Shown piece by piece: positions 2,289-60,987 of a stretch of DNA of 64,000 nucleotides. The translations under genes and the position numbers were made by a program. Numbering within the stretch: the stretch's first letter is position 1; each line of letters opens with the position of its first letter. This DNA is from Rathayibacter sp. VKM Ac-2857. Lineage in GTDB: Bacteria; Actinomycetota; Actinomycetes; Actinomycetales; Microbacteriaceae. The stretch spans positions 62,001 to 126,000 of the forward strand of contig NZ_JABMLE010000002.1 in the NCBI RefSeq assembly GCF_013205025.1, read 5' to 3'. The notes under the pieces are model-generated. The model ran no database searches. It had not been told where the DNA came from and saw only the letters and a list, made by a program, of their open reading frames with translations.

Positions 2289-2494
2289 GGTGTTCCTCTT
2301 TCACGATGGGACCCGCGGGCGGGTCGGTGGGTTCTCGAGAAGGGCCTTCACCACTACTTCCGTCCGAGCGGCCTCCGCGGATGCACCGTTCCGGAGATTT
2401 CTCGAAGGAATTCCGGCCGCGGTTCCGCGCGCCTCGCTCCGCCCCTGGTCAGACGCCTGTTCCGGGTCTAGCCTCCGAGCAGAGGGAGTCCCGC

Positions 2495-3430
2495 ATGGTG
2501 CGTCGAGGCACGGTGGCGTCCGCGCTCGATCGAGTGCGGCGGGGTGAAGTGCGGCGCCAGGGAGTGCGGCCGGATCGCTCCGTCGCCGCCGTGCGCAGCG
2601 ACTCCCCCGGGCGGCTCCTCGGGGCGACCGCCGCCTCCGCCGCCGCGATCGCGGTGCTCGCGCTCGCCCTCGCCGCCCTCGCTCCCCTCGCCGGTCTGCC
2701 CTCCGCTGCGGGCGGGACGACCGGGCCGTGCGACGAACCGCGCGAGCTGCTCGCCGCCTCCTCCGTGCTCGACCGCGAGGGTGAGGCGCTGGCCGGGCAT
2801 CTGCTGGCCTGCATCGACGCCGACCACCGCAGTCTGACGATCCACAACGACACCCCCGTCGTCTGGGTGCTGAGCGATCCCGGGGTGCGCGGCGTGGTCG
2901 GTCAGAACGATCCGAGCCGCGACGCCGGGGTCACCGGACTGCTGAGCGCGTACTCCGCTCGGATCGGCCGCGGCCTGGTGCTCCCTCCGGGTGCGTCCGC
3001 CGCGATCTCCGCGGGCCCGGGCCGGCTGGCACCGCGGCCCGACGAGGAGGCGACGCGGCTGTTCCTCGCGCTGACCGCGGTCGTCGGCGCGCAGGATCAG
3101 GTCCGTGCCACCGAGCCGCCGCGGGCGCCGCGGAGCGTCGTGCGCACGGCCGCGCTGACCTGCGCGCTCGCGCTGGTGCGGGACGGCGCCGCCCCCGGCG
3201 CCGACTCGATCACCCGGGCCGCCGGCGAGCCCGCCTGCGCCGACGCCTGGCAGCGAGCGCAGGCGAAGGCCCTCGACGACCAGTGGAGCCTCCCCGGTCT
3301 CGCCGAGGCTCTGGCGCTGCCCGGACGACCCGAGGCGGACGCCGCACTCGCCCGGTCGGCGGACGACTGGTTCGCGGCGGCGGACGGCTTCTCCTGGGGC
3401 GGGGTGGACCGGCCGGAGCGCCTGGACTGA
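2495..3430 (+). CDS. hypothetical membrane-anchored extracytoplasmic protein
   Basis: A 311-residue protein I do not recognise. About 45 charged residues precede one membrane helix (LLGATAASAAAIAVLALALAALAPL, split by its Ala/Leu repeats), so the rest should lie outside the cell. The outer part has Cys residues at CDEPRELL, LLACID, LTCALAL and PACADAW that could pair. ATG 2495 follows AGAGGGAG at suitable distance; the open frame upstream lacks a ribosome site. It is divergent from the DUF4397 gene, whose 206-bp intergenic region it shares, and may belong to the same envelope locus. No catalytic motif is visible. Confidence 0.7.
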   Translation: MVRRGTVASALDRVRRGEVRRQGVRPDRSVAAVRSDSPGRLLGATAASAAAIAVLALALAALAPLAGLPSAAGGTTGPCDEPRELLAASSVLDREGEALAGHLLACIDADHRSLTIHNDTPVVWVLSDPGVRGVVGQNDPSRDAGVTGLLSAYSARIGRGLVLPPGASAAISAGPGRLAPRPDEEATRLFLALTAVVGAQDQVRATEPPRAPRSVVRTAALTCALALVRDGAAPGADSITRAAGEPACADAWQRAQAKALDDQWSLPGLAEALALPGRPEADAALARSADDWFAAADGFSWGGVDRPERLD

Positions 3431-3465
3431 GCAGGGGCTCCGGGGGTGCCACTCAGGAAACGCGG

Positions 3466-3499
3466 AACGGGCCGCCCTCCCGGAGGAGAGCGGCCCGTT
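3466..3499. terminator. bidirectional hairpin terminator
   Basis: Perfect 10-bp arms AACGGGCCGC and GCGGCCCGTT with a 14-nt loop, placed between the convergent 2495-3430 gene and rpsO. There is no strong T-tract on either side. Confidence 0.7.
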
Positions 3500-3564
3500 C
3501 TGAAGAAGATCGCGGTGTCATCGAGACTCCGCGCTCGACCCGATGAGGGGAGGAGCGAGGAGGA

Positions 3565-3834
3565 CTATCGACGGAGGCCGAGACGCTCGATCAGCGAGCG
3601 GTAGCGGCTGATGTCCACGTCCGACAGGTAGCCGAGGAGTCGACGGCGCTGACCCACGAGCAGCAGCAGACCACGACGCGAGTGGTGGTCGTGCTTGTGC
3701 TCCTTGAGGTGCTCGGTGAGGTCCTTGATCCGCTTGGTCAGGACGGCCACCTGCACCTCGGGGGATCCGGTGTCACCGGGGTGGGTCGCGTACTCTTCGA
3801 TGATCGCCTTCTTGACGTCTGCTTCGAGTGCCAT
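3565..3834 (-). CDS. rpsO: 30S ribosomal protein S15
   Basis: An 89-residue protein of normal S15 length that binds 16S rRNA in the central domain of the small subunit during assembly. The S15 signature is complete, including [34 protein letters not shown] and the C-terminal [13 protein letters not shown]. It is monocistronic here, with about 150 nt of leader/promoter before the next gene and a hairpin terminator 66 nt beyond the stop. S15 commonly represses its own translation through its leader; I did not identify such a structure. Confidence 0.98.
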
Positions 3835-3988
3835 GAATGGGATCCCCTCTCTCTCGTTGCGCGGTGCCCGGCGCCTGATGCGTGGGCTCTCTTGATCCGC
3901 GGCCGTTGGACGGCAACCTGAGGAGCCTACCAGAGCGCGAGGTCCGGTGGGCGGCGGGATCGGGCGCCCACGGACGGGCGCCGGCGGA

Positions 3989-4492
3989 TCAGGCGCCGAC
4001 GGCCCGGTTCCAGAGCTCGACGAGCCACGGCGAGACGAGCAGCTCCCAGCCGATGACGACGAGCACGTTCAGCACCACGCCGATCCAGCCGGCGATCGGC
4101 GGCCGGCCCTCGCGGCGCCGCGCGCGGATCGAGGAGACGCCGAGCAGCACGCCGGTGAGCAGGAGCGCGTGGATGATCGCGGTGTAGAGGACGCCGACGA
4201 GCAGATCGCTGACGGCCTGGTCGCCCGGGAAGGCGCCGAGGGAGATGATCGCGTACCAGACGAAGAAGGCGATAGGGACGACGACGATCGCGAGGAGGAT
4301 CGACGCCGTCGCGGCGCCGTAGCGGCGGCGGAGCGCGGCGAGACGGCCTCCGGAGGCGGCGGCGCTCGAGCGCGCGGGGCGGGTCCGGGAGCGCGGAGCG
4401 GGGGCGGCGGCGCGGCGCGCGGGGGCGGCTCCGGCGACGCGCGACGCGGTGCTGCGCGGGCGTCGGGGCGCGCCGTCGGATGACGTGCTCAT
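3989..4492 (-). CDS. hypothetical protein with three predicted membrane helices
   Basis: A 167-residue protein. The first about 55 residues are Arg/Ala/Pro-rich and probably disordered and cytoplasmic. Three hydrophobic segments follow: [41 protein letters not shown] and [20 protein letters not shown], with a basic loop ([10 protein letters not shown]) between the second and third. This resembles small actinobacterial integral membrane proteins of unknown role. It is divergent from the MFS gene at 4569, and the two starts are only 76 nt apart. Confidence 0.75.
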
Positions 4493-4568
4493 CCCCCTAC
4501 CCTACGGTCTCCGCCTGCACGGCCCCGTGCGCCCGCGTCCGGGGCGGGACGACCGCGGAGGGACGAGA

Positions 4569-5882
4569 ATGGAGCGAGTGAGCCAGCCTCCCTCCGCACC
4601 GCGACGCAGCCACGTCGTCGACCTCTCCCCCCTCCGCGAGTCCCCCGCCTTCGCCCGACTCTGGGCGGGCAACGTGATCTCCGGCATCGGCGGGCAGATG
4701 ACGATCGTCGCCGTGGGCCTGCACATCTACGCGCTGACCGGATCGACGCTCGCCGTCGCGATGGTCGGCGTGGTGGCGCTGGTGCCGACGGTCATCGCCG
4801 GACTCTACGGCGGGATGCTCGCCGACGCCTTCGACCGCCGGCTGGTACTGCTGCTCTCCGCCATCGTCGCCTGGGGCTCGACCGCGGGGATCGCGGCGCT
4901 GGCCTGGCTCGGCACCGAGACGCCGCTCACGCTCTACGCGCTGACGGCGGTCAACGCCGTGGCGACGACCATCATCGGCGCGACCCGGATGACCGTTGCG
5001 CCGCGGCTGCTCCGGCTCGAGCTGGTGCCGGCCGCAGCGGCGCTCGGCGGGATCGCCGGCGGAGTCGAGGTGACGGTCGGGCCGGCCCTCGCGGGCGTGC
5101 TGGTCGCCTCCTCCGGCTTCGCGGTGACCTACACGATCGACGTGGTGCTCTTCCTCGCGGCCTTCCTCGGCATCGCCGGGCTGCCCGCGCTGGTGCCGGA
5201 GGGCGAGCGGCAGCGGCCGGGCCTGGAGTCGCTGCGCTACGGACTGCGCTTCCTCCGCGGGGCGCCGAACATCCGGCTGTCGTTCCTGGTCGACATCGTG
5301 GCGATGACCTTCGGGCAGCCGCGCGTGGTCTTCCCGGCGGCGGCCGCGCTGCTGCTCGGCGGCGGGGCGGTGACGGTCGGGATCCTCACCGCGGCGTACG
5401 CGGTCGGGGCGCTGCTCAGCAGCGTCTTCTCCGGGCGGCTGACCGGGGTGCGGAGCCAGGGGCTCGCGATCGGCCGGTCGATCCAGGCGTACGGCGCGCT
5501 GATCGTCGGCTTCGGCGCGGTCCTGCTGGTGGCGGAGCTGACGGCGCACGACGCCGCAGAGCCGAACCTCGGCCTGATCGCGGCGGCCTCGGTCGCGCTC
5601 GCCGGGGCCGGCGCGGCCGACAACGTCAGCTCGATCTTCCGGCAGACGATGCTGCAGACGGCGGTGCCCGACAACATGCGCGGGCGGCTGCAGGGCGTCT
5701 TCATCGTGGTGGTCACGGGCGGGCCGCGGGTCGGCGACCTCTACACGGGGCTGCTGGCCTCGCTCGCGCTGCTCTGGCTGCCGCCGCTGGCCGGCGGGCT
5801 GGCGATCGTCCTGATCCTGGCGGCGGTGCTGCGGCTCAGCCCGGGCTTCCGGCGCTACGACGCGCTGCATCCGGTGGCCTGA
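4569..5882 (+). CDS. MFS transporter, EntS/MFS_3-type exporter
   Basis: A 437-residue major facilitator protein with about 12 membrane helices. The N-terminus (LRESPAFARLWAGNVISGIGGQMTIVAVGLHIYALTGS) and the loop 2-3 signature GGMLADAFDRRLVLL are typical of the MFS_3 group that includes the enterobactin exporter EntS. The substrate cannot be read from sequence; export of a siderophore or drug is a family-level inference. ATG 4569 has GGAGGG 6 nt upstream; a GTG at 4578 is an alternative. No siderophore biosynthesis genes lie nearby. Confidence 0.85.
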   Translation: MERVSQPPSAPRRSHVVDLSPLRESPAFARLWAGNVISGIGGQMTIVAVGLHIYALTGSTLAVAMVGVVALVPTVIAGLYGGMLADAFDRRLVLLLSAIVAWGSTAGIAALAWLGTETPLTLYALTAVNAVATTIIGATRMTVAPRLLRLELVPAAAALGGIAGGVEVTVGPALAGVLVASSGFAVTYTIDVVLFLAAFLGIAGLPALVPEGERQRPGLESLRYGLRFLRGAPNIRLSFLVDIVAMTFGQPRVVFPAAAALLLGGGAVTVGILTAAYAVGALLSSVFSGRLTGVRSQGLAIGRSIQAYGALIVGFGAVLLVAELTAHDAAEPNLGLIAAASVALAGAGAADNVSSIFRQTMLQTAVPDNMRGRLQGVFIVVVTGGPRVGDLYTGLLASLALLWLPPLAGGLAIVLILAAVLRLSPGFRRYDALHPVA

Positions 5883-5897
5883 GGCACGTGGTGGGGT

Positions 5898-5933
5898 GAC
5901 CGCGCCGCCGCCCGTGGAGCGAGCGGCGCGGTC
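5898..5933. terminator. bidirectional hairpin terminator
   Basis: Perfect 11-bp arms GACCGCGCCGC and GCGGCGCGGTC with a 14-nt loop, between the convergent MFS gene and the small acidic gene at 5940. Confidence 0.8.
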
Positions 5934-5939
5934 GCGGGG

Positions 5940-6212
5940 TCACTCGCCGGCGTAGGCGCCGGCGGCGTTGCCGTCGGTGAGGTCGTCCGAGACCTCGCCG
6001 CTGTCGTCGTCGCGTCCCTCGACGCGGACGGGGCGGTAGACGTGGAAGCCGTCGATCTCGCCGTCCAGCTCCCAGACGACCTCGACCTCCTCGCCGTCGA
6101 TGTCGGCGACGCGGGTGAGGGAGCGCTGCGGGGAGCCGTCGATGAGTTCGAGGCGGATGCTCTCCTGCTCCGCGCCGCTGTCGAGCATGGCCGTGTACGT
6201 GGTGGTGTCCAT
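5940..6212 (-). CDS. small acidic hypothetical protein
   Basis: A 90-residue, strongly acidic, apparently cytoplasmic protein with no signal peptide or membrane segment. The middle (VADIDGEEVEVVWELDGEIDGFHVYRPV) looks like beta-strands, and the tail is Asp/Gly/Ala-rich and probably disordered. I do not recognise a family. A TAGCGT -10-like box ends 6 nt before the ATG, so the transcript may be leaderless. It is divergent from the FMN-binding protein gene at 6288 with a 75-bp shared promoter region, so the two may be co-regulated. Confidence 0.7.
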   Translation of the reverse strand: MDTTTYTAMLDSGAEQESIRLELIDGSPQRSLTRVADIDGEEVEVVWELDGEIDGFHVYRPVRVEGRDDDSGEVSDDLTDGNAAGAYAGE

Positions 6213-6287
6213 CCCTCGACGCTAGCCAGGCCGTCGACGCGCTCGCCACCCCTTGCGGCGTCCGTGCTTCCGCGTAGCGTCGGGGCC
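6213..6287. promoter_or_regulatory. divergent pair of leaderless-type promoters
   Basis: On the plus strand TTGCGG (6253-6258), a 16-bp spacer and TAGCGT (6275-6280) end 7 nt before ATG 6288. On the minus strand TAGCGT ends 6 nt before ATG 6212. Both starts would lie at or next to the transcription start. Confidence 0.55.
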
Positions 6288-6794
6288 ATGACCGACACCT
6301 CCATCACCCCCGCCACGGACGACGACCGCGCTCAGATCACCGAGATCGTGAAGAGCGCGAAGATCGGACTCCTCACCACCGTCAACGAGACCGGGCAGCT
6401 CGTCAGCCGGCCGCTCGCCGCGCAGGACATCGACTTCGACGGCGACCTCTGGTTCTTCACCCAGGACCCGTCGGCGAAGGTCGACGACATCCGCGCCAAC
6501 CCGAGCGTCAACGTCGCGTTCGAGTCGAAGAAGGGCTACCTGTCGGTGGCCGGCTCGGCGACCGTCGTGCACGACCCCGCCAAGGTGGACGAGCTGTGGT
6601 CGCCCTCGATCTCGGCCTGGTTCCCGGACGGCAAGGACGACCCGAGCGTCGCGCTGCTGCGCGTCTCGGCCGAGACCGTCGAGCTCTGGGTGACCGACTC
6701 CCCCGCCCCCGTCGTCCTCTTCAAGGTCGCCAAGGCGGCCGTCACCGGCGGCCAGCCCGACATCGGCGAGAACCGCACCGTCAGCTTCGAGTAG
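6288..6794 (+). CDS. pyridoxamine 5'-phosphate oxidase family protein (general stress protein 26 type)
   Basis: A 168-residue split-barrel flavin-binding protein. The N-terminal block IVKSAKIGLLTTVNETGQLVSRPL followed by DGDLWFFTQDPSAKVDDIRANPSVNVAF matches the general stress protein 26 group, which binds FMN or a related cofactor and has poorly defined redox activity. It is not the vitamin B6 biosynthetic PdxH, whose substrate-binding tail is absent. The leaderless-type promoter fixes the start at 6288. A palindromic element begins 17 nt after the stop and may act as its terminator. Confidence 0.88.
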   Translation: MTDTSITPATDDDRAQITEIVKSAKIGLLTTVNETGQLVSRPLAAQDIDFDGDLWFFTQDPSAKVDDIRANPSVNVAFESKKGYLSVAGSATVVHDPAKVDELWSPSISAWFPDGKDDPSVALLRVSAETVELWVTDSPAPVVLFKVAKAAVTGGQPDIGENRTVSFE

Positions 6795-53063: not shown

Positions 53064-53543
53064 ATGTCCGTCTCCGTCGCGCCGTTCCCGCCCGCCGAAC
53101 TCGCCGAGTGGATGTCCCTCCAGCGCGCGACGTACATCGAGGACCGGATCCGCGCCGGCGACGACGAGGCCGCCGCCGTGCGGAACGCCGACGCGAACGA
53201 CGAGCGGCTGTTCCCGGGCGGCGTCCTCGCCCCGGGCCACGACGTGCTGCGGGTCCTCGACGACGGGCGCCCGGTCGGCGTGATCTGGGTCGGCCCGCAC
53301 CCGCAGGAGCTCGAGGGCGTCGCCTACATCTGGGACGTCGAGGTCGACCCTTCGGAGCGCGGCCGTGGCTTCGGCCGCGCGGCGATGCTGCTGGCGGAGG
53401 AGCACGCCCGCTCGCGCGGCTACCGGGCGCTCGCGCTGAACGTCTTCGGCTTCAACACCGCGGCGCGGGGACTGTACGAGTCGCTCGGCTACGAGCCGAC
53501 GTCGCTCCAGATGCGCAAGGAGCTCGGCGCCGCGGAGGCGTGA
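53064..53543 (+). CDS. GNAT-family N-acetyltransferase
   Basis: A 159-residue acetyltransferase. The acetyl-CoA site is VDPSERGRGFGRAAMLLAEEHARSRG (Q/R-x-x-G-x-G/A), preceded by strand AYIWDVEV and followed by ALNVFGFNTAARGLYESLGYEPTSLQMRKEL. The acceptor is unknown. It starts 22 nt after the family 2 palindrome and ends one nucleotide before the convergent toxin gene, so the defence island borders directly on it. Confidence 0.92.
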   Translation: MSVSVAPFPPAELAEWMSLQRATYIEDRIRAGDDEAAAVRNADANDERLFPGGVLAPGHDVLRVLDDGRPVGVIWVGPHPQELEGVAYIWDVEVDPSERGRGFGRAAMLLAEEHARSRGYRALALNVFGFNTAARGLYESLGYEPTSLQMRKELGAAEA

Positions 53544-53544
53544 C

Positions 53545-53886
53545 TCACTTCGTCGCGTTCGGATGCCGGGTGTGCACCTGCTCGAGGAACACCGTCCGGC
53601 CCACCACGAAGAACCAGAGGCGCGCGTCGCCCTGCCGCGTCGGCTTGTGCTGCCAGCGCTCGTGCACGACGGCGCCCTTCGTCAGGGTGCCGAGCTCGCC
53701 CCGCAACCGGTAGTTCAACGGGGTCGTCGCCGCCGGCGTCCGCGTCAGGAAGTCCCACGCCTCCGCCAGGGCGTTCCGGCTGGTGGCGCAGAGGTCGGTC
53801 CAGCCCTTCTGCGCCTGCAGCGTCGCGAAGCGGATCTCGTACTCCGACTTCTTGAGAGGCCGCTCGACGCGGCTGTCCCTCGCCAC
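53545..53886 (-). CDS. RelE-like toxin of a type II toxin-antitoxin pair
   Basis: A 113-residue basic protein. The pattern KSEYEIRFATLQAQKGWTDL, PLNYRLRGELGTL, HERWQHKPTRQGDARLWFFVVGRTVFLEQVHTRHPNATK resembles RelE/HigB-like ribonucleases, including the frequent ending HxHPNxTK. It should cut mRNA when free of antitoxin. The GTG start lies 2 nt after the antitoxin stop, so the two are coupled. Toxin downstream of antitoxin is the usual order. Confidence 0.78.
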   Translation of the reverse strand: MARDSRVERPLKKSEYEIRFATLQAQKGWTDLCATSRNALAEAWDFLTRTPAATTPLNYRLRGELGTLTKGAVVHERWQHKPTRQGDARLWFFVVGRTVFLEQVHTRHPNATK

Positions 53887-53888
53887 GG

Positions 53889-54338
53889 CTATGGACGCTC
53901 GACGACGATGCCGGTCTCGAGCCAGTCGACCGGCATGATCGCGAGTCCGTCGGCGATCGCCGTGGCCGACTCCCGCCAGGAGACCAGCTCGGCCGCGGCC
54001 AGGTGCGCGTGACCGGTGGCGAAGGACGCGCGCGCCGTCGACAGCAGGTCCTTCGCGCACTGCTCCCGGTCCGGGCCGGACAGCGCGAGCATCCAGGGGA
54101 AGACCTGCGCCATCCGGTCGCCGAGCGTTCCCCGGTCGTCGGTCGAGACCGCGATGAGCTGGGCGGCCAGCTGCAGCAGCTGCTCGCGCGAATCCGCCTC
54201 GCGCTTGGACATCAGCACGAGGTCGTCCCCGTCGCGACGCGTGACGTCGACCGGCTGCTCCTCCGCTGCGGCGAAGACGGCACGGGCGTTCCGGCTCAGC
54301 TCGGAGGACTGGAACGTCGGGATCGGGGTGGTGGCCAT
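53889..54338 (-). CDS. Phd/YefM-like antitoxin with long C-terminal domain
   Basis: A 149-residue protein. Its first 55 residues follow the Phd/YefM pattern (FQSSELSRNARAVFAAAEEQPVDVTRRDGDDLVLMSKREAD), a DNA-binding dimer module. The rest is about 95 residues of helix-rich sequence, longer than the short disordered toxin-wrapping tail of most Phd proteins. TATGAT ends 6 nt before ATG 54338, so the message is probably leaderless, and an inverted repeat overlaps the promoter, fitting autorepression. Confidence 0.8.
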   Translation of the reverse strand: MATTPIPTFQSSELSRNARAVFAAAEEQPVDVTRRDGDDLVLMSKREADSREQLLQLAAQLIAVSTDDRGTLGDRMAQVFPWMLALSGPDREQCAKDLLSTARASFATGHAHLAAAELVSWRESATAIADGLAIMPVDWLETGIVVERP

Positions 54339-54369
54339 TCCTCTATCATAGTTCAGAACGAATTCTGAA
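54339..54369 (-). promoter_or_regulatory. toxin-antitoxin promoter and operator
   Basis: Inverted repeat TTCAGAA-CGAA-TTCTGAA (54352-54369, plus-strand reading) sits immediately upstream of the minus-strand -10 TATGAT (about 54345-54350), 6 nt before ATG 54338. Antitoxin or the complex binding there would occlude RNA polymerase. Confidence 0.65.
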
Positions 54370-54457
54370 GTAGAGGAGGCGCGAGACATCGCGTGCACGA
54401 GCGCCGTCCGGCGTTCGGTGGACATCTTCGCGCGAGAAGGCTTCGGGAGCACCGCTG

Positions 54458-54463
54458 TAGGTT
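54458..54463 (+). promoter_or_regulatory. -10 box of the MazG/DUF2075 operon
   Basis: TAGGTT ends 7 nt before ATG 54471, predicting a leaderless message. The 132-bp region between this operon and the divergent antitoxin holds both promoters. Confidence 0.5.
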
Positions 54464-54470
54464 GGCTGGC

Positions 54471-54788
54471 ATGCCCGATGACGACGTCCTCGACGCCCTC
54501 CGCGCCTTCGTCCGGGAGCGGGAGTGGGCGCAGTTCCACTCGCCGGAGAACCTCGCGAAGAGCATCAGCATCGAGTCGGGCGAGCTGCTCGAGTGCTTCC
54601 AGTGGGGCGAGGGCGACCTCCCCGCGGCGGTCGACGAGCTGGCGGACGTGCTGACGTACTGCTTCCTCCTCGCGGACCGGCTCGGAGTCGATCCCGGCGC
54701 GATCGTCCTCGACAAGCTCGAGAAGACGCGCGCGAAGTACCCGGTGGAGAAGGCGCGCGGCCGGAGCGAGAAGCATGACCGGCTTTGA
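54471..54788 (+). CDS. MazG-like nucleotide pyrophosphohydrolase
   Basis: A 105-residue all-alpha NTP pyrophosphatase. The metal-binding motifs are ESGELLE (Glu35, Glu38) and DELADVLTY (Glu57, Asp60), the EExxE-ExxD arrangement of the iMazG/RS21-C6 group. It hydrolyses NTPs or dNTPs to NMP and pyrophosphate. Its last 14 nt overlap the start of the GIY-YIG/DUF2075 gene, so the two proteins are made together. In a defence setting it could lower nucleotide pools during infection or clear modified nucleotides; that role is inferred. Confidence 0.85.
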   Translation: MPDDDVLDALRAFVREREWAQFHSPENLAKSISIESGELLECFQWGEGDLPAAVDELADVLTYCFLLADRLGVDPGAIVLDKLEKTRAKYPVEKARGRSEKHDRL

Positions 54789-56493
54789 GCTCGAGCGCCT
54801 GCCCTTCGACGGGGACCGGGTGCGCGCCTGGGGAGCCGCCGACCCCCGGCACCGCAACTGGCCCGTCGTGTACGTCCTCGACAGCGCCTCGGAGGTCTAC
54901 GTCGGCGAGTCGCTCAACGCGGAGGCGCGACTGCGCCAGCACCTGGACTCACCGATCAAGAGCCGCCTCGATCGTGTGCGGGTGGTCTTCGACGACACGT
55001 TCAACAAGTCGGCCTGCCTCGATCTCGAGTCGTTCCTGCTGCGGATGCTCGCCGGCGAGGGTCGCCTGACGGTCCTCAATCAGAACGCCGGCATCACCGA
55101 CGCCGACTACTTCGACCGCGCCTCCTACCGGGAGACCTTCGACGAGGTCTTCGAGGTGCTCCGCACCCAGGAGCACCTCTTCCAGCGGACGATCCCGGAG
55201 ATCGTCAACAGCGACCTCTTCAAGCTGTCGCCGTTCAAAGCGCTCAACCACGATCAGGCCGTCGCCGTCGAGGACATCCTCGAGGGGCTGTTCGCCGACC
55301 TCGAGACTGGCGAGCGGAGCACCGTCGTCGTGCAGGGCGACCCAGGCACCGGGAAGACCGTCGTCGCGATCTACCTGCTGAAGCTCCTGCAGGACATCCG
55401 CCGGCACGATCCGGAGGAGCCGCTGGACGCCGACTCCGTCTTCAGCGAGTTCTTCACCCCGGGGCACGCCGAGCTGCTCGCGACACTGCGGGTAGGCCTC
55501 GTCGTGCCGCAGCAGTCGCTGCGCGGGTCGATCTCGCGGGTCTTCACCCTCACGCCGGGGCTGTCGAAGGACCTCGTGCTGACGCCGTTCCAGGTCGGCG
55601 AGAGCGAGGAGCCCTTCGATCTGCTGCTCGTGGACGAGGCGCACCGGCTCAGCCAGCGCGCGAATCAGCCGTCAGGGCCGCTGAACCGGAAGTTCATCGA
55701 CATCAACGAGCGCCTCTTCGGCGCGGACTCGCCGGAGCACACGCAGCTCGACTGGATCCGCGCGCAGAGCCGGCACACGATCCTGATGCTCGACACCGCG
55801 CAGACCGTGCGCCCGGCGGACCTGCCCGCCACCGTCACCCGAGCCGTCCTGGCAAAGGCGTCGGCCGCGGGTCGGCTCTACCCGCTCCGCTCGCAGATGC
55901 GCATCGCCGCGGACAAGGACTACGTCGGCTACGTGCGCGCCGTGCTGTCCGACGATCCTCCCCCCGCGCGCGAGGACTTCGGCGGGTACGACCTCCGCTT
56001 CTTCGACGATCCGAGCGAGCTGCGGCGTGCCGTGGTGCAGCGCGACCGGGAGCACGGCCTCTCGCGCTTGGTCGCCGGCTACGCCTGGAAGTGGGTCACG
56101 AAGACGGACAAGAGCGCCTTCGACATCGTGATCGGCGACGAGTCCCTTCGCTGGAATCAGACGCAGCGGGACTGGATCAATTCCCCCGGCGCGATCGACG
56201 AGGTCGGCTCCATTCACACGGTGCAGGGCTACGACCTGAACTACGCCGGAGTGATCATCGGCCGGGATCTGCGCTACGACACCGCCTCGGGCCGCATCGT
56301 CTTCGATCGCGCGCACTCCTTCGACAAGAAGGGCCGCGAGAACAACAAGAAGCTCGGCATCACCTACAGCGACGAGGACCTGCTCGCGTACGTTCGCAAT
56401 ATTTACACGGTGCTGCTGACGCGCGGGATCAGGGGGACGTACGTGTACGTCTGCGACGAGGCGCTCCGGGCGCACCTGGCGCGCTACTTCTGA
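54775..56493 (+). CDS. GIY-YIG nuclease domain fused to DUF2075 superfamily 1 helicase-like ATPase
   Basis: A 572-residue two-domain protein. The N-terminal GIY-YIG domain has VVYVLDSASEVYVGES (residues 31-46, standing for GIY and YIG), the conserved Arg at 52 or 54 and Glu85. The ATPase has Walker A GDPGTGKT (188-195), Walker B LLLVDEAHRL (DEAH 287-290), a late HTVQGYDLNYAGVIIG and VLLTRGIRGTYVYV, typical of DUF2075. It could recognise and cut structured or foreign DNA with ATP-driven movement. It is coupled to the MazG-like gene and flanked by two toxin-antitoxin-type systems, so antiviral defence is the leading hypothesis. Confidence 0.82.
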   Translation: MTGFELERLPFDGDRVRAWGAADPRHRNWPVVYVLDSASEVYVGESLNAEARLRQHLDSPIKSRLDRVRVVFDDTFNKSACLDLESFLLRMLAGEGRLTVLNQNAGITDADYFDRASYRETFDEVFEVLRTQEHLFQRTIPEIVNSDLFKLSPFKALNHDQAVAVEDILEGLFADLETGERSTVVVQGDPGTGKTVVAIYLLKLLQDIRRHDPEEPLDADSVFSEFFTPGHAELLATLRVGLVVPQQSLRGSISRVFTLTPGLSKDLVLTPFQVGESEEPFDLLLVDEAHRLSQRANQPSGPLNRKFIDINERLFGADSPEHTQLDWIRAQSRHTILMLDTAQTVRPADLPATVTRAVLAKASAAGRLYPLRSQMRIAADKDYVGYVRAVLSDDPPPAREDFGGYDLRFFDDPSELRRAVVQRDREHGLSRLVAGYAWKWVTKTDKSAFDIVIGDESLRWNQTQRDWINSPGAIDEVGSIHTVQGYDLNYAGVIIGRDLRYDTASGRIVFDRAHSFDKKGRENNKKLGITYSDEDLLAYVRNIYTVLLTRGIRGTYVYVCDEALRAHLARYF

Positions 56494-56530
56494 GCAGGGG
56501 ATCGCGGAGCCGCAGACGTTCGGAGTCACA

Positions 56531-56596
56531 TGACACGACGAAAAGCAGTACAGGTATACTAACCCTGTATTGAATTCTGCTGAGGGGAGGGCGAGC
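56531..56596 (+). promoter_or_regulatory. AbiE promoter and operator
   Basis: -10 TATACT (56555-56560), with TGACAC 18 bp upstream as a weak -35. Inverted repeat TACAGG (56549-56554) and CCTGTA (56564-56569) encloses the -10, as expected for AbiEi autorepression. The tract is conspicuously AT-rich for this genome. Confidence 0.65.
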
Positions 56597-57178
56597 GTGG
56601 ACGCGACGACTGTGCCGGACCTTCTCGACTACCGCGGTCTGGCTGCGCAAGGCCTCACCCGATACGGCCTCGACGGCTTGATCCGGACGGGCGAGTTCGA
56701 GCGCATCGCTCCCGGCCTGTTCCTCCGATCTGGGCTCGCCGACGACACGACGGCGGCGTGGATCGCGATCGCGGCGAAGAACGCCGACGCCACGCTGTGC
56801 CTCCTCACGGCGCTCTCGCTGCACGAGCTGACCGACGAGATCCCTTCTCGAAGCGACGTCGCTGTTCCACGCGGCGCTCAGACGGTCACCGTGCATCACG
56901 CCCTCCTCACCTGGCACCGGTTCGACGCCGGCACGTTCGGCGTCGGTCGCGGTGAACACGCACTCCCCGGCGGGATGTCGATCGGCCTCTACTCGGCCGA
57001 GCGCACCCTGATCGACGTCTTCCGGCTGCGGCACGTCTGGGGCGCCGACCTGGCGCTCGGCGCGCTCAAGCAGTGGCTCCGCAGGCGGGGCAGCAGCCCG
57101 GGTGCGCTGCTCGCGATGGCCGAGGACTTCCCGATGGCGCGTCCCGCACTCCAGCAGGCCCTGGAGGTTCTTCTGTGA
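56597..57178 (+). CDS. AbiEi-type antitoxin (type IV system regulator)
   Basis: A 193-residue protein. The N-terminal winged helix (LDYRGLAAQGLTRYGLDGLIRTGEFERIAPGLFLR) matches AbiEi_4, and the C-terminal antitoxin domain covers the rest (SAERTLIDVFRLRHVWGADLALGALKQWLRR). It represses its own promoter and counters the AbiEii nucleotidyltransferase without direct binding in the studied case. GTG 56597 has GGGAGGG 5 nt upstream; the TTG at 56570 would begin inside the promoter. It overlaps abiEii by 4 nt (GTGA). Confidence 0.85.
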   Translation: MDATTVPDLLDYRGLAAQGLTRYGLDGLIRTGEFERIAPGLFLRSGLADDTTAAWIAIAAKNADATLCLLTALSLHELTDEIPSRSDVAVPRGAQTVTVHHALLTWHRFDAGTFGVGRGEHALPGGMSIGLYSAERTLIDVFRLRHVWGADLALGALKQWLRRRGSSPGALLAMAEDFPMARPALQQALEVLL

Positions 57179-58077
57179 GCCCTGGTCCGCAGCGCGGCAC
57201 TCCGGAGGGCGACGCGACTCTCGCCATCCGCTCCTTCGCCCGGCGGTCCGGCGCGGACGTGCAGGAGCTGATGACTCTGTACGCGCTCGAGGGGCTGCTG
57301 GCGCGGATCGCGCTCTCCGAGTACCGCGAGGACTTCGTTCTCAAGGGCGGTGTGCTGCTCGCCGCGTTCGCTGCGCGCCGCCCGACGAAGGACATCGACC
57401 TCCAGGCGACCGGACTCGACAGTGACCCCGAGGAGGTCGCGGAGCGTGTTCGAGCGATCGCGGCGCTGGGGTGCGCCGACGGCCTCGTCTTCGACCCCTC
57501 CGCCGTCACCGCGACGACGATCCGCGACGAGGACGAGTACGCGGGCGTGCGAGTGAGACTGACCGCGCGGCTCGGCTCTGCGCGGTTGACCATCGGGATG
57601 GACGTGAACTTCGGCGACCCGATCTGGCCCGCACCGCGCCTCGTCGACCTGCCGCGCGTCGTTCCTCTCGGCCTCCCGCCCGTGACGGTGCTCGGCTACC
57701 CGCTGACGATGGTGTTCGCCGAGAAGATCGTCACTGCCATCGACCGCGGTGTCGCCAACACTCGATGGCGTGACTTCGCCGACGTCTACGCGCTCACCCG
57801 ACTCCACTCTGTCGACGCAGGAGAGCTCCGCACCTCGATGACCGCTGTCGCCGAGTACCGCGGGGTCGCGCTGGCGCCCCTCCTGCCCGCGCTCGCGCCC
57901 ATGAGCGAACGATCGCAGCAGAAGTACCGCGCCTGGCGTACCCGCTCGCACCGTGACGGCGAGGTCCCCGAGGCGTTCGGCGACCTGCTCGGCGCGGTCG
58001 CGCGCTTCGCCGACCCGGTGCTGTCCGCCGCCGCAGTGCCAGGTCGATGGAACCCTGTCGTCGCGACCTGGGAGTGA
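57175..58077 (+). CDS. AbiEii-type nucleotidyltransferase toxin
   Basis: A 300-residue protein of the AbiEii/AbiGii family. The nucleotidyltransferase motifs are FVLKGGVLLAAFAARRPTKDIDLQA (KGG and DID metal site) and VLGYPLTMVFAEKIVTAIDRG with RWRDFADVY. AbiEii proteins modify essential RNAs such as tRNA acceptor ends and cause abortive infection. GGAGG lies 7 nt before GTG 57175, which overlaps the AbiEi stop. GC is slightly lower than in the housekeeping genes around it. Confidence 0.88.
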   Translation: MSPGPQRGTPEGDATLAIRSFARRSGADVQELMTLYALEGLLARIALSEYREDFVLKGGVLLAAFAARRPTKDIDLQATGLDSDPEEVAERVRAIAALGCADGLVFDPSAVTATTIRDEDEYAGVRVRLTARLGSARLTIGMDVNFGDPIWPAPRLVDLPRVVPLGLPPVTVLGYPLTMVFAEKIVTAIDRGVANTRWRDFADVYALTRLHSVDAGELRTSMTAVAEYRGVALAPLLPALAPMSERSQQKYRAWRTRSHRDGEVPEAFGDLLGAVARFADPVLSAAAVPGRWNPVVATWE

Positions 58078-58165
58078 GGGCAAGGCCTCGCTGCCGACCG
58101 GCGCGGGGATCCGGGACGACGAGGCTGCACGAGCCCGCGCTCGAGGTCGGTGTCGCCCGACGCGG

Positions 58166-58939
58166 TCAGGGGCCGGAGAACGTGACGGCGATCGTGCCGC
58201 TGGGGACGGCGGCGGCGGCGAGTGCCGCCGCGGCGCGGTCGGCGTCGCTCGTCAGGGTCACGTCGAGGTGGTCGGGGTCGGCGCGGAAGCCCGTGGTGGG
58301 GACCGCGGCCGAGATCGCGGTCCAGAGGCGCTGGGCGTCGTCGAGCCAGGGGCCCGGGGTGCCGGTGACGAGCAGGGCGCGGTCGGCGCTCTGGACGCTC
58401 ACGTGCAGGGGCGGGGTGTCGGGGAGGAGCGCGGGGGCGTCGCGGGCGAGAGCGAAGGCGTCGTCGGCGGTCGCCTCCTCCGACAGGAAGAGACTCAGGC
58501 CGCTCACGCGGTCCTCGCTGTCGTCGGCGGCGAGGGCGAGGGACTCGACGCGCGGGTCCTCGCGGAGTGCGAGCGCGGCGGCGATCCGGCCGGATGTGAG
58601 GTCCTCGTCGCCGGACACGGGCAGGGTGAGGTCGTCGGCGTCGAGGAGGATCCGCACGTCGCCCGTCGGGCGCTTCGCGGCGAAGTCGCTCAGCCGCTCG
58701 GCCAGGGAGGTCAGGTCGGCGTCCGAGAGGTCCTCGCGGGCCACGATCTCGGCGCTGACTCCGCCGCCGAACGGCAGGTCCTCGACGGTGGCGAGTTCGA
58801 GGTCGGCGACGAACTCGTCGCGGCCGAAGGTGCGCGCGAAGTCGGCGCGGAAGGAGTCGCCGCTGCAGCCTGCCAGCAGGAGTACCGCCGTCAGGACGAC
58901 GCAGGCACGGCCGAGCCCGCGCGTCCGACCCTGCCTCAT
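58166..58939 (-). CDS. hypothetical lipoprotein
   Basis: A 257-residue exported protein with lipobox LLAGC (VVLTAVLLLAGCSGDSF), so lipid-anchored outside the membrane. The rest is two similar alpha/beta halves (LSDADLTSLAERLSDFAAKRPTGDVRI and LWTAISAAVPTTGFRADPDHLDVTL), possibly a duplication. The family is not recognised. TACGCT ends 6 nt before ATG 58939, a leaderless-type promoter; the upstream ATG at 58972 lies beyond it. It borders the defence island on the right and is convergent with abiEii. Confidence 0.75.
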   Translation of the reverse strand: MRQGRTRGLGRACVVLTAVLLLAGCSGDSFRADFARTFGRDEFVADLELATVEDLPFGGGVSAEIVAREDLSDADLTSLAERLSDFAAKRPTGDVRILLDADDLTLPVSGDEDLTSGRIAAALALREDPRVESLALAADDSEDRVSGLSLFLSEEATADDAFALARDAPALLPDTPPLHVSVQSADRALLVTGTPGPWLDDAQRLWTAISAAVPTTGFRADPDHLDVTLTSDADRAAAALAAAAVPSGTIAVTFSGP

Positions 58940-59116
58940 CGGGCCAGCGTACGTTCCGACCGGGGAGCGCACGGGGAGTGGACGGATCAGCCTCCGCGTG
59001 CTCGGCGTGCGAGTGGGTTCGTCGATCCGGCGCGGAGGGTCGTGTGGAGACCGTCGAGGCAGCCGTTGGTGACGGATCGATGCGGCGACAGCGGCGGCGG
59101 GGCCGGGCCGGGCCGG

Positions 59117-59143
59117 GGCCGCCCGCGGCGAGGGCGGGCGGCC
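59117..59143 (-). terminator. hairpin terminator after the flotillin gene
   Basis: Perfect 10-bp arms GGCCGCCCGC and GCGGGCGGCC with a 7-nt loop, 8 nt beyond the stop. Confidence 0.75.
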
Positions 59144-59151
59144 TCGGGTCG

Positions 59152-60666
59152 TCAGCTCGTCGAGGGGACGGCGGTGGGATCGGCCGACGGGGCGGGCTCG
59201 GCGGCCGAGGTCGAGGCCACGCCCCGGCCGAACGCCTGGCCCTGGAGGATCGCTCCGAGGTCGACGCCGGTCGCGGACTTGACGCTGTCGAACGTGGCCG
59301 AGAGGCTCGCCGCCTGCTCGCGGGCGATGTGCGTGGCCGCGGTGTCGCCTCCGATCAGCGTGACGGTTCCGACGTTCTGGTAGCCCTTCGCGAACTCCGC
59401 CATGAGGGAGGGGAGCTGTCCGATGAGCTCGCGGCCCAGGATCGCCTCCTGGTTCTCGCGGAGCGCTTCCGCCTCGGCCTGGATCGCGGCCGCGCTCGCC
59501 TCACCCTTGGTGCGGATGGCCTCCGCCTCGGCGGAAGCGTTCGCGCGCAGGGCCTCGGCCTCGGCGCCGGCCTTGGCGCGCAGAGCGTGGGCCTCCGCCT
59601 CGGCGCGGGCGCTCACCGCTGCCGCCTCGGCCGCGGCGGACGCCTGGCGGGCCTCCGCCTGGCGCTGGACGGCGTAGGCCTCGGCGTCGGACACCTGCTG
59701 CGCGACCTGGCGGTCGGTCTCGGCCTTCTTCGCGCGCCCGTAGGCGTCGGCGTCGGCCTCGGTCTGGCGCCGATACTTCTCGGCGTCCGCGACGCGCTTG
59801 ACGTCGGCGTCGAGCTCGGCCTGCCGGTTCTCGGCGCGCTGGACGAGGACGGCCTGCTCGCGCTCGGCGCGGGCCAGGTTCTCGGCCTGCTCGGCCTCGG
59901 CGTTGGCGCGGCCGACCTCGGACTTCGAGGCGGCGGTGTTCTTGTCGAAGGCGGTCTGCTCGATCAGGTTCGCCTCGTCGGTGGCGAGCTGGCGGGCCTT
60001 GACCTCGCGGGCCGCGTTGATCCGGGCGACGTCGGCCTCGCGCCGGACGCGCTCGATCTCCTGCGCACCGAGCGCCTCGATGTAGCCGTTGCGGTCGGTG
60101 ACGCCCTGGATGGCGAAGGAGTCGAGGACGAGGCCCTGGGCGAGCAGGTCGCCCTTGATGCCCTCGGCGATCTCGTCACCGAGCTTCTGGCGGTCCTGCA
60201 TGACCTCCTCGACGCTGAGCTTCGCGACGACGCCGCGCAGCGCGCCCTCGAGCTGCTCGGTGGTGAAGACGTCGATCGACTGGTCCTGCGAGGCGAACCG
60301 CTCGGCGGCGGCGCGCACCTGATCCGGCGTGGAGCCGATCTTGACGAGGGCGACGCCCGCGAGGTGGATCGTCACGCCGTTCTTGGTCTGCGCGACAGGC
60401 TCCATCTTGATCTGCCGCGACCGCAGCGAGATGCGGTCGGAGCGCTGGGTCAGCTTGTTGACGAAGGCGCCGCCGCCGGTGATGACGGTCATGTTGGACG
60501 TCAGCCCGTCGTCGCCCTTCTGCTTCTTTCCGACGATCACGATGGCCTCGTCGGCCTGCGGGACCTGATACCAGGCCCGGAAGATGAAGAAGCCGATGAT
60601 GGCGAGCAGCAGGACGACACCGACGGCGATGCCGGCGCCGACGATCCAGAACAGATCAGATTGCAT
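59152..60666 (-). CDS. flotillin/SPFH-domain membrane protein
   Basis: A 504-residue protein. One N-terminal membrane helix (FWIVGAGIAVGVVLLLAIIGFF) is followed by the SPFH/band 7 domain (about residues 30-200, QVPQADEAIVIVGKKQKGDDGL, VTIHLAGVALVKIG). A long Ala/Glu/Arg coiled coil follows (EAEQAENLARAEREQAV, AAEAAAVSARAEAEAHAL), then a Thr/Pro/Ser tail. Flotillins organise membrane microdomains with other proteins. ATG 60666 is chosen from the family start; an upstream in-frame ATG at 60729 lies before a leader hairpin. Confidence 0.92.
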   Translation of the reverse strand: MQSDLFWIVGAGIAVGVVLLLAIIGFFIFRAWYQVPQADEAIVIVGKKQKGDDGLTSNMTVITGGGAFVNKLTQRSDRISLRSRQIKMEPVAQTKNGVTIHLAGVALVKIGSTPDQVRAAAERFASQDQSIDVFTTEQLEGALRGVVAKLSVEEVMQDRQKLGDEIAEGIKGDLLAQGLVLDSFAIQGVTDRNGYIEALGAQEIERVRREADVARINAAREVKARQLATDEANLIEQTAFDKNTAASKSEVGRANAEAEQAENLARAEREQAVLVQRAENRQAELDADVKRVADAEKYRRQTEADADAYGRAKKAETDRQVAQQVSDAEAYAVQRQAEARQASAAAEAAAVSARAEAEAHALRAKAGAEAEALRANASAEAEAIRTKGEASAAAIQAEAEALRENQEAILGRELIGQLPSLMAEFAKGYQNVGTVTLIGGDTAATHIAREQAASLSATFDSVKSATGVDLGAILQGQAFGRGVASTSAAEPAPSADPTAVPSTS

Positions 60667-60987
60667 GGACGAGAGACCCCCTTCTCGGAACCCGCGGGGG
60701 GCGGGTTTCTGAGCGATGTACAGGTTCATCGTGGCATGGACGGGGTTCCCGGGCGTCGGCCGGACGGCGGATGCGGGGTCGTTCGCGCGGGACGCGCGGC
60801 GGTGCCGGACGGAGGGCAGGACCGCCCTCGGGACGCCGAGCAGCCAGCCGGATCGACGCCTTCACAGCGAGCGGAATCGCGGCGGGCGGACGCACAGCCG
60901 GCGGGATCGCAGTGAGCGGAGGCGGCGAGAGGAGCCGTCGCGGCGGAGGAGCCGGGCGAAGCTTCGACTCTCGCGAGCACTTCAGTG
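60667..60987. promoter_or_regulatory. 321-bp intergenic region with hairpin upstream of flotillin
   Basis: AACCCGC-GGGGG-GCGGGTT at 60689-60707 is a perfect 7-bp hairpin 23 nt upstream of the flotillin ATG, in its leader. Apart from this I see no gene or clear promoter between the flotillin start and the tRNA. Confidence 0.4.

What the first reader, a model, noticed from the sequence alone, without database searches (positions are those of the whole stretch)
54471..56493. MazG-like pyrophosphohydrolase coupled to a GIY-YIG/DUF2075 helicase: candidate two-gene defence system
The two genes overlap by 14 nt under one leaderless-type promoter. One has an intact ExxE/ExxD metal site; the other has a GIY-YIG nuclease joined to a Walker A/B ATPase with DEAH. 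They sit between a Phd/RelE-like module and AbiE. Nucleotide depletion plus nuclease/helicase is a combination seen in antiviral systems, but I know of no named system with exactly this pair.
Basis: partly seen in the sequence, partly recalled or inferred. Interest (0 to 1): 0.78.

Follow-up and report, generated by a model that had tools for sequence, protein, structure and literature searches.

The report
Nucleotide-destroying enzyme paired with nuclease-helicase
A small enzyme that probably breaks down DNA building blocks is locked, gene against gene, to a DNA-cutting motor protein in a mobile two-gene unit of soil and plant bacteria; it looks like an undescribed anti-virus system, but protection has not been shown.

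Summary
Window 54471-54788 encodes a MazG-like, dCTPP1-type NTP pyrophosphohydrolase; 54775-56493 encodes a GIY-YIG nuclease fused to a SLFN-g3 (DUF2075) superfamily-1 helicase. Expected catalytic residues are invariant in homologues. The genes overlap by 14 nt, as in 55 of 58 measured Microbacteriaceae pairs, behind a conserved leaderless -10 box (54 of 66 loci). The host is a Rathayibacter.

The pair travels as one unit. The helicase is in 64 of 249 Microbacteriaceae genomes; all 60 full-length MazG copies found lie in those genomes, 59 directly beside it. Flanking genes differ from species to species. Distant DUF2075 helicases with an apparent PD-(D/E)XK nuclease instead of GIY-YIG also have a MazG neighbour in 10 of 18 actinobacterial loci; 788 kb of control DNA held none. 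One scaffold has both helicase types around a single MazG gene.

PADLOC-DB names no such system and ten open-access literature searches found none; MazG is in print as a predicted, unvalidated defence domain. Best reading: a mobile anti-phage unit in which the nuclease-helicase attacks DNA and MazG acts on the dNTP pool. Defence is inferred; MazG's role is open.

The parts
54458..54463 (+). -10 box TAGGTT of a leaderless promoter
   Evidence: Starts 13 nt before the MazG start codon; TANNNT at -16..-10 in 54 of 66 loci
54471..54788 (+). MazG-like (dCTPP1/RS21-C6 type) NTP pyrophosphohydrolase, 105 aa
   Evidence: PF12643 63 bits; dCTPP1 chains in PDB E 5e-15, profile E 3.7e-24; E35 E38 E56 D59 invariant in 75
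54763..54766 (+). GGAG, probable ribosome-binding site of the second gene, inside the MazG gene
   Evidence: Sequence; GGAGC at this position in 11 of the 14 loci printed
54775..54788 (+). 14-nt gene overlap; helicase ATG formed by the MazG [Y/H]-D codons
   Evidence: Exactly 14 nt in 55 of 58 measured Microbacteriaceae pairs; TATGAC 64 or CATGAC 2 of the 66 loci with a 14-nt overlap
54775..56493 (+). GIY-YIG nuclease fused to SLFN-g3 (DUF2075) SF1 helicase, 572 aa
   Evidence: PF09848 231.9 bits; AlphaFold2 pLDDT 86.5, pTM 0.84; Foldseek RecD2, Dna2, Upf1, SLFN14
54775..55167 (+). GIY-YIG nuclease domain (residues 1-131; active-site residues Y33, Y42, R52, H56, E85, N102)
   Evidence: Invariant in 74 homologues; model m50e4cebb5e4f matches UvrC 1ycz
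55336..55359 (+). Walker A GDPGTGKT (residues 188-195)
   Evidence: Sequence; G188, G191-T195 invariant
55633..55644 (+). Walker B / DEAH (residues 287-290)
   Evidence: D287, E288, H290 invariant
53889..54338 (-). Divergent Phd-like gene (weak), neighbour, not part of the unit
   Evidence: PF02604 22.2 bits, under the cut-off; a similar stretch lies 3' of the pair in L128
56570..58077 (+). AbiE operon (AbiEi 56570-57178, AbiEii to 58077), neighbour, not part of the unit
   Evidence: PADLOC AbiEi 2.1e-44, AbiEii 8.4e-79; absent from the same site in L002

Best explanation
The two genes form one mobile immune unit. Shown by sequence: a conserved leaderless-type promoter, overlapping genes, all expected catalytic residues kept under purifying selection, and co-occurrence of the two genes. 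Inferred: the helicase loads on foreign or abnormal DNA, unwinds it, and its GIY-YIG domain nicks or cuts it, as in other nuclease-helicase immune proteins. The MazG partner hydrolyses dNTPs, most likely dCTP or modified dCTP, so that phage replication is also starved, or so that modified nucleotides are kept out of host DNA. Which of these MazG roles is right is open.
For: Unit: helicase in 64 of 249 Microbacteriaceae genomes; MazG found with it in 60 of the 64, and in 57 of the 58 whose helicase gene is intact; the 60 full-length MazG copies found in the 249 genomes all lie in genomes that have the helicase, 59 of them adjacent and one (G487) about 1 kb away; the only other match is a 41-residue fragment in G494. 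17 of 17 full-length relatives in named genomes, out to a Saccharibacteria MAG, have MazG directly upstream. Catalysis kept; dN/dS 0.11-0.34 over five comparisons per gene. Mobile: on average 1.25 of 55 other loci share a flanking protein, against 21.97 of 29 for gltX (the gltX loci were the 30 best matches of 59, so somewhat closer kin); 880 neighbours of 62 loci fall in 798 clusters, none in more than 4 loci; two slots in one hotspot within the genus; broken copies in G413, G487, G547, G562 and G589. Defence context: AbiE in the window; DruE and PD-Lambda-1 among 9 neighbours scanned singly; type I restriction genes and CRISPR III-A beside plasmid relatives. Deeper coupling: 17 of 28 actinobacterial helicase loci have MazG against 0 hits in 787,940 control bases. 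Precedent for nuclease-helicase immunity: Nhi, Hna, AbpAB (PMC12904381, PMC10732053, passages read).
Against: No phage or enzyme experiment exists here. Outside the clade MazG is often missing: 11 of 28 loci in the phylum draw (some with under 500 nt of upstream DNA fetched), and 11 of the 15 plasmid records opened have none adjacent, among them the GIY-YIG relatives L079 and L115-L119; so the helicase can work without it. Related MazG-like genes also stand alone in ordinary contexts on large replicons, and some plasmid helicases lie among metabolic genes. Neighbour enrichment is crude: 182 against 71 PADLOC families for 37 of the 64 loci and 37 control regions, counted as families and not proteins, 5 of 9 neighbours matched nothing and 2 matched only mad3/mad8. 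tRNA proximity is not enriched: 12 of 64 against 9 of 40. PADLOC profiles match P0002 only partly and weakly. In congener G611 neither gene is at the site, but the SPFH gene there is truncated, so this may be a deletion and not an empty site.
Confidence: 0.62

Rival explanations
1. DNA-repair or house-cleaning module: MazG removes damaged dNTPs and the UvrC-like GIY-YIG helicase excises the same lesions from DNA. It protects against mutagens, not phage.
For: MazG relatives are classic house-cleaning enzymes (recalled), some standing alone; the GIY-YIG domain's best fold match is UvrC and the helicase's are RecD2 and Dna2.
Against: Patchy in 64 of 249 species of one family, variably placed, with several decayed copies; neighbours differ from species to species and include some defence genes.
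Confidence: 0.15
2. MazG is the trigger, not a weapon: it lowers local NTP or dNTP levels and thereby releases a nucleotide-inhibited nuclease-helicase, as described for Ppl, whose inhibition by NTPs is relieved by pool depletion.
For: Strict 1:1 coupling and gene overlap in the clade suit a regulator; precedent read in a passage of PMC12904381.
Against: Helicases without MazG exist in both nuclease classes; no nucleotide-binding regulatory site was looked for or identified.
Confidence: 0.2
3. Anti-plasmid or selfish stabilisation element: the unit degrades incoming plasmids or makes its own loss costly, and phage defence is secondary.
For: Related systems ride on plasmids and the pair changes place within a hotspot.
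Against: Copies decay, as in G562 and G413, which speaks against strong addiction; no neighbour is fixed with the pair.
Confidence: 0.12

Closest known systems
Nhi, nuclease-helicase immunity (PADLOC PDLC02372)
   Same: One protein joining a nuclease to a helicase; weak profile similarity in the helicase (E 8.7e-5 for the window protein; 2.7e-14 for the L125 GIY-YIG relative)
   Different: Only a short stretch of the profile aligns; here the nuclease is GIY-YIG; Nhi is described as a single gene (PMC12904381, passage), here MazG accompanies nearly every copy in the clade
AbiO and PADLOC candidates PDC-S41 and PDC-S14
   Same: Partial matches in helicase or nuclease parts (E 1.5e-5, 7e-8, 4.3e-6)
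   Different: No full-length match; whether those systems have a MazG partner was not looked up
DefensePredictor candidate system with a MazG domain (PMC13092281, Fig. 6F; passages and legends read)
   Same: MazG-type NTP pyrophosphohydrolase predicted as defensive
   Different: Not validated there; GIY-YIG and DUF2075 do not occur in the main text; the figure itself is not held, so its partner genes are unknown to me
Human dCTPP1 / mouse RS21-C6
   Same: Human E63, E66, E95, D98 and W47, W73, Y102, K121 align with E35, E38, E56, D59, W19, W45, Y63, K82 (alignment; roles of the human residues recalled)
   Different: House-cleaning enzyme of animals with no nuclease-helicase partner (recalled); the first aligned human residue, H38, is L10 here
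Type IV-like restriction enzyme with NUDIX partner (L. plantarum plasmid, L078)
   Same: A nucleotide hydrolase gene overlapping a nuclease-helicase gene, directly next to a MazG plus GIY-YIG-DUF2075 pair
   Different: Different folds in both parts (NUDIX; PLD nuclease with SF2 helicase and DUF3427). PADLOC says mREase_IV; likeness to SauUSI is recalled

Membership tests
SLFN-g3 / DUF2075 helicases (PF09848) | Profile match over the cut-off with intact Walker A and B | tested here: met
   231.9 bits against 24; motifs invariant in 74
GIY-YIG nuclease superfamily | Catalytic Tyr, Tyr, Arg, Glu, Asn in order (motif recalled) | tested here: met
   Y33, Y42, R52, E85, N102 in 74 of 74
GIY-YIG nuclease superfamily | Pfam PF01541 over the cut-off | tested here: inconclusive
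   No match on the window protein at E<=0.01; met by homologues L078 (27.4 bits) and L125 (28.1 bits) against 22.6
GIY-YIG nuclease superfamily | GIY-YIG fold | tested here: met
   Domain model pLDDT 90.3; 5 of the best 6 Foldseek matches are UvrC GIY-YIG, but E is only 0.088-0.15
MazG-like pyrophosphohydrolases (PF12643), dCTPP1 type | Profile match and ExxE...ExxD metal site | tested here: met
   63 bits against 27; residues invariant in 75
MazG (PF03819) | Profile match over the cut-off | tested here: not met
   18.1 bits against 22
Nhi | Full-length profile match | tested here: not met
   E 8.7e-5, residues 137-205 of 572 only
AbiO | Full-length profile match | tested here: not met
   E 1.5e-5, residues 157-206 only
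Any named PADLOC 2.0.0 system | Strong match of both proteins | tested here: not met
   P0001 no hits at E<=0.01, P0002 partial hits only
DefenseFinder systems | Model match | not testable with these tools
   DefenseFinder is not on hand
Anti-phage defence system | Lowers phage plating or spread when expressed | not testable with these tools
   Needs an experiment
Nucleotide-depletion defence | dNTP pool falls on infection through the system | not testable with these tools
   Needs metabolite measurement

The most novel reading that the evidence does not exclude
The pair belongs to a general, undescribed design: a nucleotide pyrophosphohydrolase of any fold (MazG, NUDIX, Ham1) coupled to a nuclease-helicase of any type (GIY-YIG or PD-(D/E)XK with SLFN-g3 SF1; PLD with SF2). 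Both halves would act on the same non-canonical base: the hydrolase destroys the modified dNTP in the pool, and the nuclease-helicase cuts DNA into which it was built, so the host is guarded against self-restriction while modified-DNA phages are hit twice. Pointers: L125, with PD-(D/E)XK helicase, MazG, GIY-YIG helicase and Ham1 in a row; L078, with NUDIX, a type IV-like enzyme, MazG and GIY-YIG helicase; MazG lineages shared across both nuclease types. These are two loci and one poorly resolved tree.
Probability: 0.22. Interest if true: 0.82.

Novelty: new variant of a known kind. Interest (0 to 1): 0.64.

Why it matters
If it defends, it is a common (64 of 249 Microbacteriaceae species sampled), compact immune unit that the PADLOC catalogue misses, and a nuclease-helicase immunity hard-wired to a dNTP pyrophosphohydrolase, of which I found no earlier description in the searches made. 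It would give an experimental handle on an open question: whether the nucleotide enzymes that computational surveys predict to be defensive, MazG among them and not yet validated according to PMC13092281, starve the phage, trigger a nuclease, or police modified bases.

Tried and rejected
Rejected readings. (1) Housekeeping pair: spoken against for the clade by variable placement relative to the gltX control. (2) Chance adjacency: refuted by the 14-nt overlap, the reciprocal linkage and zero MazG hits in 787,940 control bases. (3) Insertion next to tRNA genes as a rule: no enrichment, 12 of 64 against 9 of 40, although the Rathayibacter hotspot lies by tRNA-Gln. (4) The pair as mainly a phage gene: one distant relative (27% over 132 residues) confirmed among 104 candidate stretches of the viral contigs, and 4 phage records: three fecal scaffolds named 'Bacteriophage sp.' (two opened, both marked UNVERIFIED) and Microcystis phage Mwe-JY31, which does carry a MazG gene before a PD-(D/E)XK-type helicase (L083). 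(5) A fixed operon with AbiE or the Phd-like gene: AbiE is missing at the same site in L002. (6) Simple descent of MazG with nuclease type: the MazG tree mixes partners (7 changes for the 24 GIY rows, 3 forced by starred branches), though it is poorly resolved.

Led nowhere or weak: the defence-neighbour count could only be had as families per set; glcD was a poor synteny control because of paralogues and was replaced by gltX; Streptomyces L019 was only a 47-residue match; E. coli genomes gave no match to the L. plantarum gene.

Rows to bear in mind: five helicases were dropped (L170, L173, L187, L188, L189; broken, too long or fragments), while L164 and L186, which are interrupted, stayed in, which explains some columns with 72-73 of 74. 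In the all-loci overlap count (66 of 76 at 14 nt) L002/L127 and L005/L128 are the same strains; the family-only count (55 of 58) avoids that, and one of its 58 (L188) has a broken helicase. Of 64 family loci, L164 and L170 have MazG but a broken helicase and were not measured; L141, L186, L187 and L189 show no MazG. L031 is a 321-residue fragment of unknown nuclease type, so the PD-(D/E)XK count is 10 of 18 and the whole 17 of 28; the second helicases of G161 and G171 were not fetched. Of 37 plasmid records with a helicase match 30 were listed and 15 opened for it.
Full report
What is there. The window lies in a Rathayibacter genome (4.6 Mb): the nearest named relative is Rathayibacter sp. VKM Ac-2856, 93% identical for the larger protein, and the genome with that same contig is listed as of the same genus. 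The first gene (54471-54788) encodes a 105-residue MazG-like protein (PF12643, 63 bits) whose solved relatives are dCTPP1/RS21-C6 and a pyrophosphatase, 4qgp. In the alignment, E63, E66, E95, D98, W47, W73, Y102 and K121 of dCTPP1 all have identical partners here; that they bind metal, base and phosphate in the human enzyme is recalled. The second gene (54775-56493) encodes 572 residues: an N-terminal GIY-YIG nuclease and a C-terminal SLFN-g3/DUF2075 helicase (PF09848, 231.9 bits). An AlphaFold2 model from 17 sequences is confident (mean pLDDT 86.5, pTM 0.84); its best matches are superfamily-1 helicases, RecD2 (E 1.6e-10), Dna2, Upf1 and human SLFN14 (E 2.4e-8), with TM-scores on the query of only 0.30-0.36. 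The first 143 residues, folded alone (pLDDT 90.3), match the UvrC GIY-YIG domain best, with probability 0.97 but a weak E-value of 0.088. The residues of both active sites are invariant in 74 helicases and 75 MazG proteins.

How it is expressed. A TANNNT box starts 16 to 10 nt before the MazG start codon in 54 of 66 loci, almost always at -12 or -13; windows of equal width further upstream hold it in 0 to 9 of 66. That is the spacing of a leaderless transcript (recalled). The helicase start codon lies inside the last codons of MazG: the sequence around it is TATGAC in 64 and CATGAC in 2 of these 66 loci, and the overlap is exactly 14 nt in 55 of 58 family pairs that could be measured. Both genes are under purifying selection (dN/dS 0.11-0.34 against five relatives).

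How tightly the two genes go together. A pattern scan of the genome collection found 17 full-length relatives, and all 17 have the MazG gene directly upstream, including a Saccharibacteria MAG at 40% identity. In 249 Microbacteriaceae genomes the helicase occurs in 64. MazG was found with it in 60; the four without are one intact gene (G465), one broken gene (G413), one contig-edge fragment (G633) and one remnant (G562). In the other direction, MazG was found in 61 of the same 249 genomes: 60 full-length copies, all in genomes with the helicase, 59 adjacent to it and one (G487) about 1 kb off, and one 41-residue fragment in G494. The own genome has no second copy of either gene at the thresholds used.

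How it is placed. Flanking genes of 62 loci give 880 proteins in 798 clusters, none shared by more than four loci. With 1.5-kb flanks, 34 of 56 loci share a neighbour with at least one other, on average 1.25 of 55 others, against 21.97 of 29 for gltX; the gltX loci were the 30 best of 59 matches and so lean to closer kin. Within Rathayibacter the pair sits in one hotspot between a permease/GNAT stretch and tRNA-Gln/gltX, but in two different slots relative to the SPFH gene (window, L002, L003, L004 against L005/L128 and the G562 remnant). In G611 neither gene is found there, but its SPFH gene is truncated, so insertion and deletion cannot be told apart. AbiE stands directly downstream in the window and is missing at the same place in L002. 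tRNA genes are not enriched near the pair in general: 12 of 64 against 9 of 40 controls.

Defence context. In the window: AbiE. Of 9 neighbours of relatives scanned singly, one is Druantia DruE, one PD-Lambda-1, two match mad3/mad8 and five match nothing at E<=1e-20. Of 148 neighbours from 37 of the 64 loci, PADLOC matched 182 families against 71 for 148 proteins from 37 control regions; this counts redundant models, not proteins, and is only suggestive. Of 15 plasmid records opened around helicase matches, some have restriction genes, a CRISPR III-A locus or McrB/McrC-like genes (that DUF2357 and DUF3578 belong to McrBC-like systems is recalled) beside the helicase, while others lie among metabolic genes.

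The wider family. DUF2075 helicases without GIY-YIG carry a different N-terminal region with an invariant D-x17-E-x-K pattern (26 of 26 aligned), which I read as a PD-(D/E)XK nuclease; no Pfam family called it in the three such proteins scanned. On a tree of the helicase domain alone the two nuclease types split cleanly (one change, support 100; quick method, 60 rows). MazG neighbours occur on both sides, upstream or downstream, needing 13 changes of presence. In a draw of 396 actinobacterial genomes, 28 helicase loci besides the window's were fetched and 17 have a MazG gene within the fetched flanks, one of them on the opposite strand: 7 of 9 GIY-YIG loci, 10 of 18 of the other type, and not the fragment L031. 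Flanks were counted from the match, so some loci had under 500 nt upstream and the misses may be overcounted. The same MazG profile found nothing in 787,940 bases of control regions or 262,883 bases around glcD and gltX. In plasmids, 37 records have the helicase (30 listed) and 21 have MazG; at least 10 records of 72,556 have both, 3 of them in direct neighbourhood by annotation, and a fourth pair was seen in L114, making 4 adjacent of 15 opened. The MazG tree, poorly resolved, mixes partners of both nuclease types. On the unverified scaffold L125 a single MazG lies between a PD-(D/E)XK-type helicase and a GIY-YIG helicase, followed by a Ham1 family protein. On an L. plantarum plasmid, NUDIX plus a type IV-like restriction enzyme stand directly before MazG plus GIY-YIG-DUF2075.

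What it most likely does. Distribution, variable placement, decay, coupling and some neighbours point to an immune function. Nuclease-helicases such as Nhi, Hna and AbpAB defend against phages and are reported to respond to phage single-stranded-DNA-binding proteins (PMC12904381 and PMC10732053, passages read). For MazG I see three roles: starving replication, releasing a nucleotide-inhibited nuclease (as described for Ppl in PMC12904381), or removing modified dNTPs. The third is suggested by the dCTPP1-like site and the company of a type IV-like enzyme with its own NUDIX partner, but no result here separates them. Helicases without MazG show that the helicase can function alone, at least in other lineages.

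What is known. PADLOC-DB 2.0.0 has no model that covers the pair; partial matches to PDC-S41, PDC-S14, AbiO and Nhi are weak. Ten full-text searches of open-access PMC papers listed no paper whose title or abstract start describes this pair; eight papers were looked up and seven were held and searched for terms, one of them with one section read, and of the 51 papers only 20 were listed. Subscription papers and preprints are not held. DefensePredictor (PMC13092281; passages and figure legends read) lists MazG among domains predicted as defensive and not validated, and cites a 2015 bioinformatic survey that is not held. So the general idea that MazG defends is not new; the locked pair with a GIY-YIG SLFN-g3 helicase, its conserved expression layout and the exchanged nuclease are new as far as I could search.

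Noticed in passing
L125:2761-7156 (MT838580.1, unverified human fecal scaffold): PD-(D/E)XK-type DUF2075 helicase, MazG, GIY-YIG-DUF2075 helicase and a Ham1-family NTP pyrophosphatase in a row: two nucleotide hydrolases with two nuclease-helicases.
   Followed up: partly
L078:2249-7644 (L. plantarum plasmid NZ_CP028230.1): NUDIX gene overlapping by 14 nt a PLD-ResIII-DUF3427 type IV-like restriction enzyme, directly before the MazG plus GIY-YIG-DUF2075 pair: the same hydrolase plus nuclease-helicase design with other folds.
   Followed up: partly
window 53543-60987: Variable hotspot between a GNAT gene and tRNA-Gln/gltX in Rathayibacter; contents and order differ between strains, AbiE is absent in L002, and the pair is absent in G611, where the SPFH gene is truncated.
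   Followed up: partly
DUF2075 helicases L029-L047, L081-L083, L121-L125 (those without GIY-YIG): N-terminal region with invariant D-x17-E-x-K, apparently an unnamed PD-(D/E)XK nuclease domain that no Pfam family called in the three proteins scanned.
   Followed up: partly
window 53545-53904 (-): 119-residue ORF beside the Phd-like gene, no Pfam, PADLOC or NCBIfam match; possible unknown toxin partner.
   Followed up: no
L173 (G545) 14.0-17.0 kb: Fragments of one or more further copies of the helicase gene downstream of an intact pair.
   Followed up: no
L083:4937-7143 (Microcystis phage Mwe-JY31): A phage record carries a MazG gene directly before a PD-(D/E)XK-type DUF2075 helicase.
   Followed up: partly
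L116 (F. sanfranciscensis plasmid) 1693-6656: A GIY-YIG DUF2075 helicase without MazG next to cytosine deaminase and cytosine permease genes.
   Followed up: no
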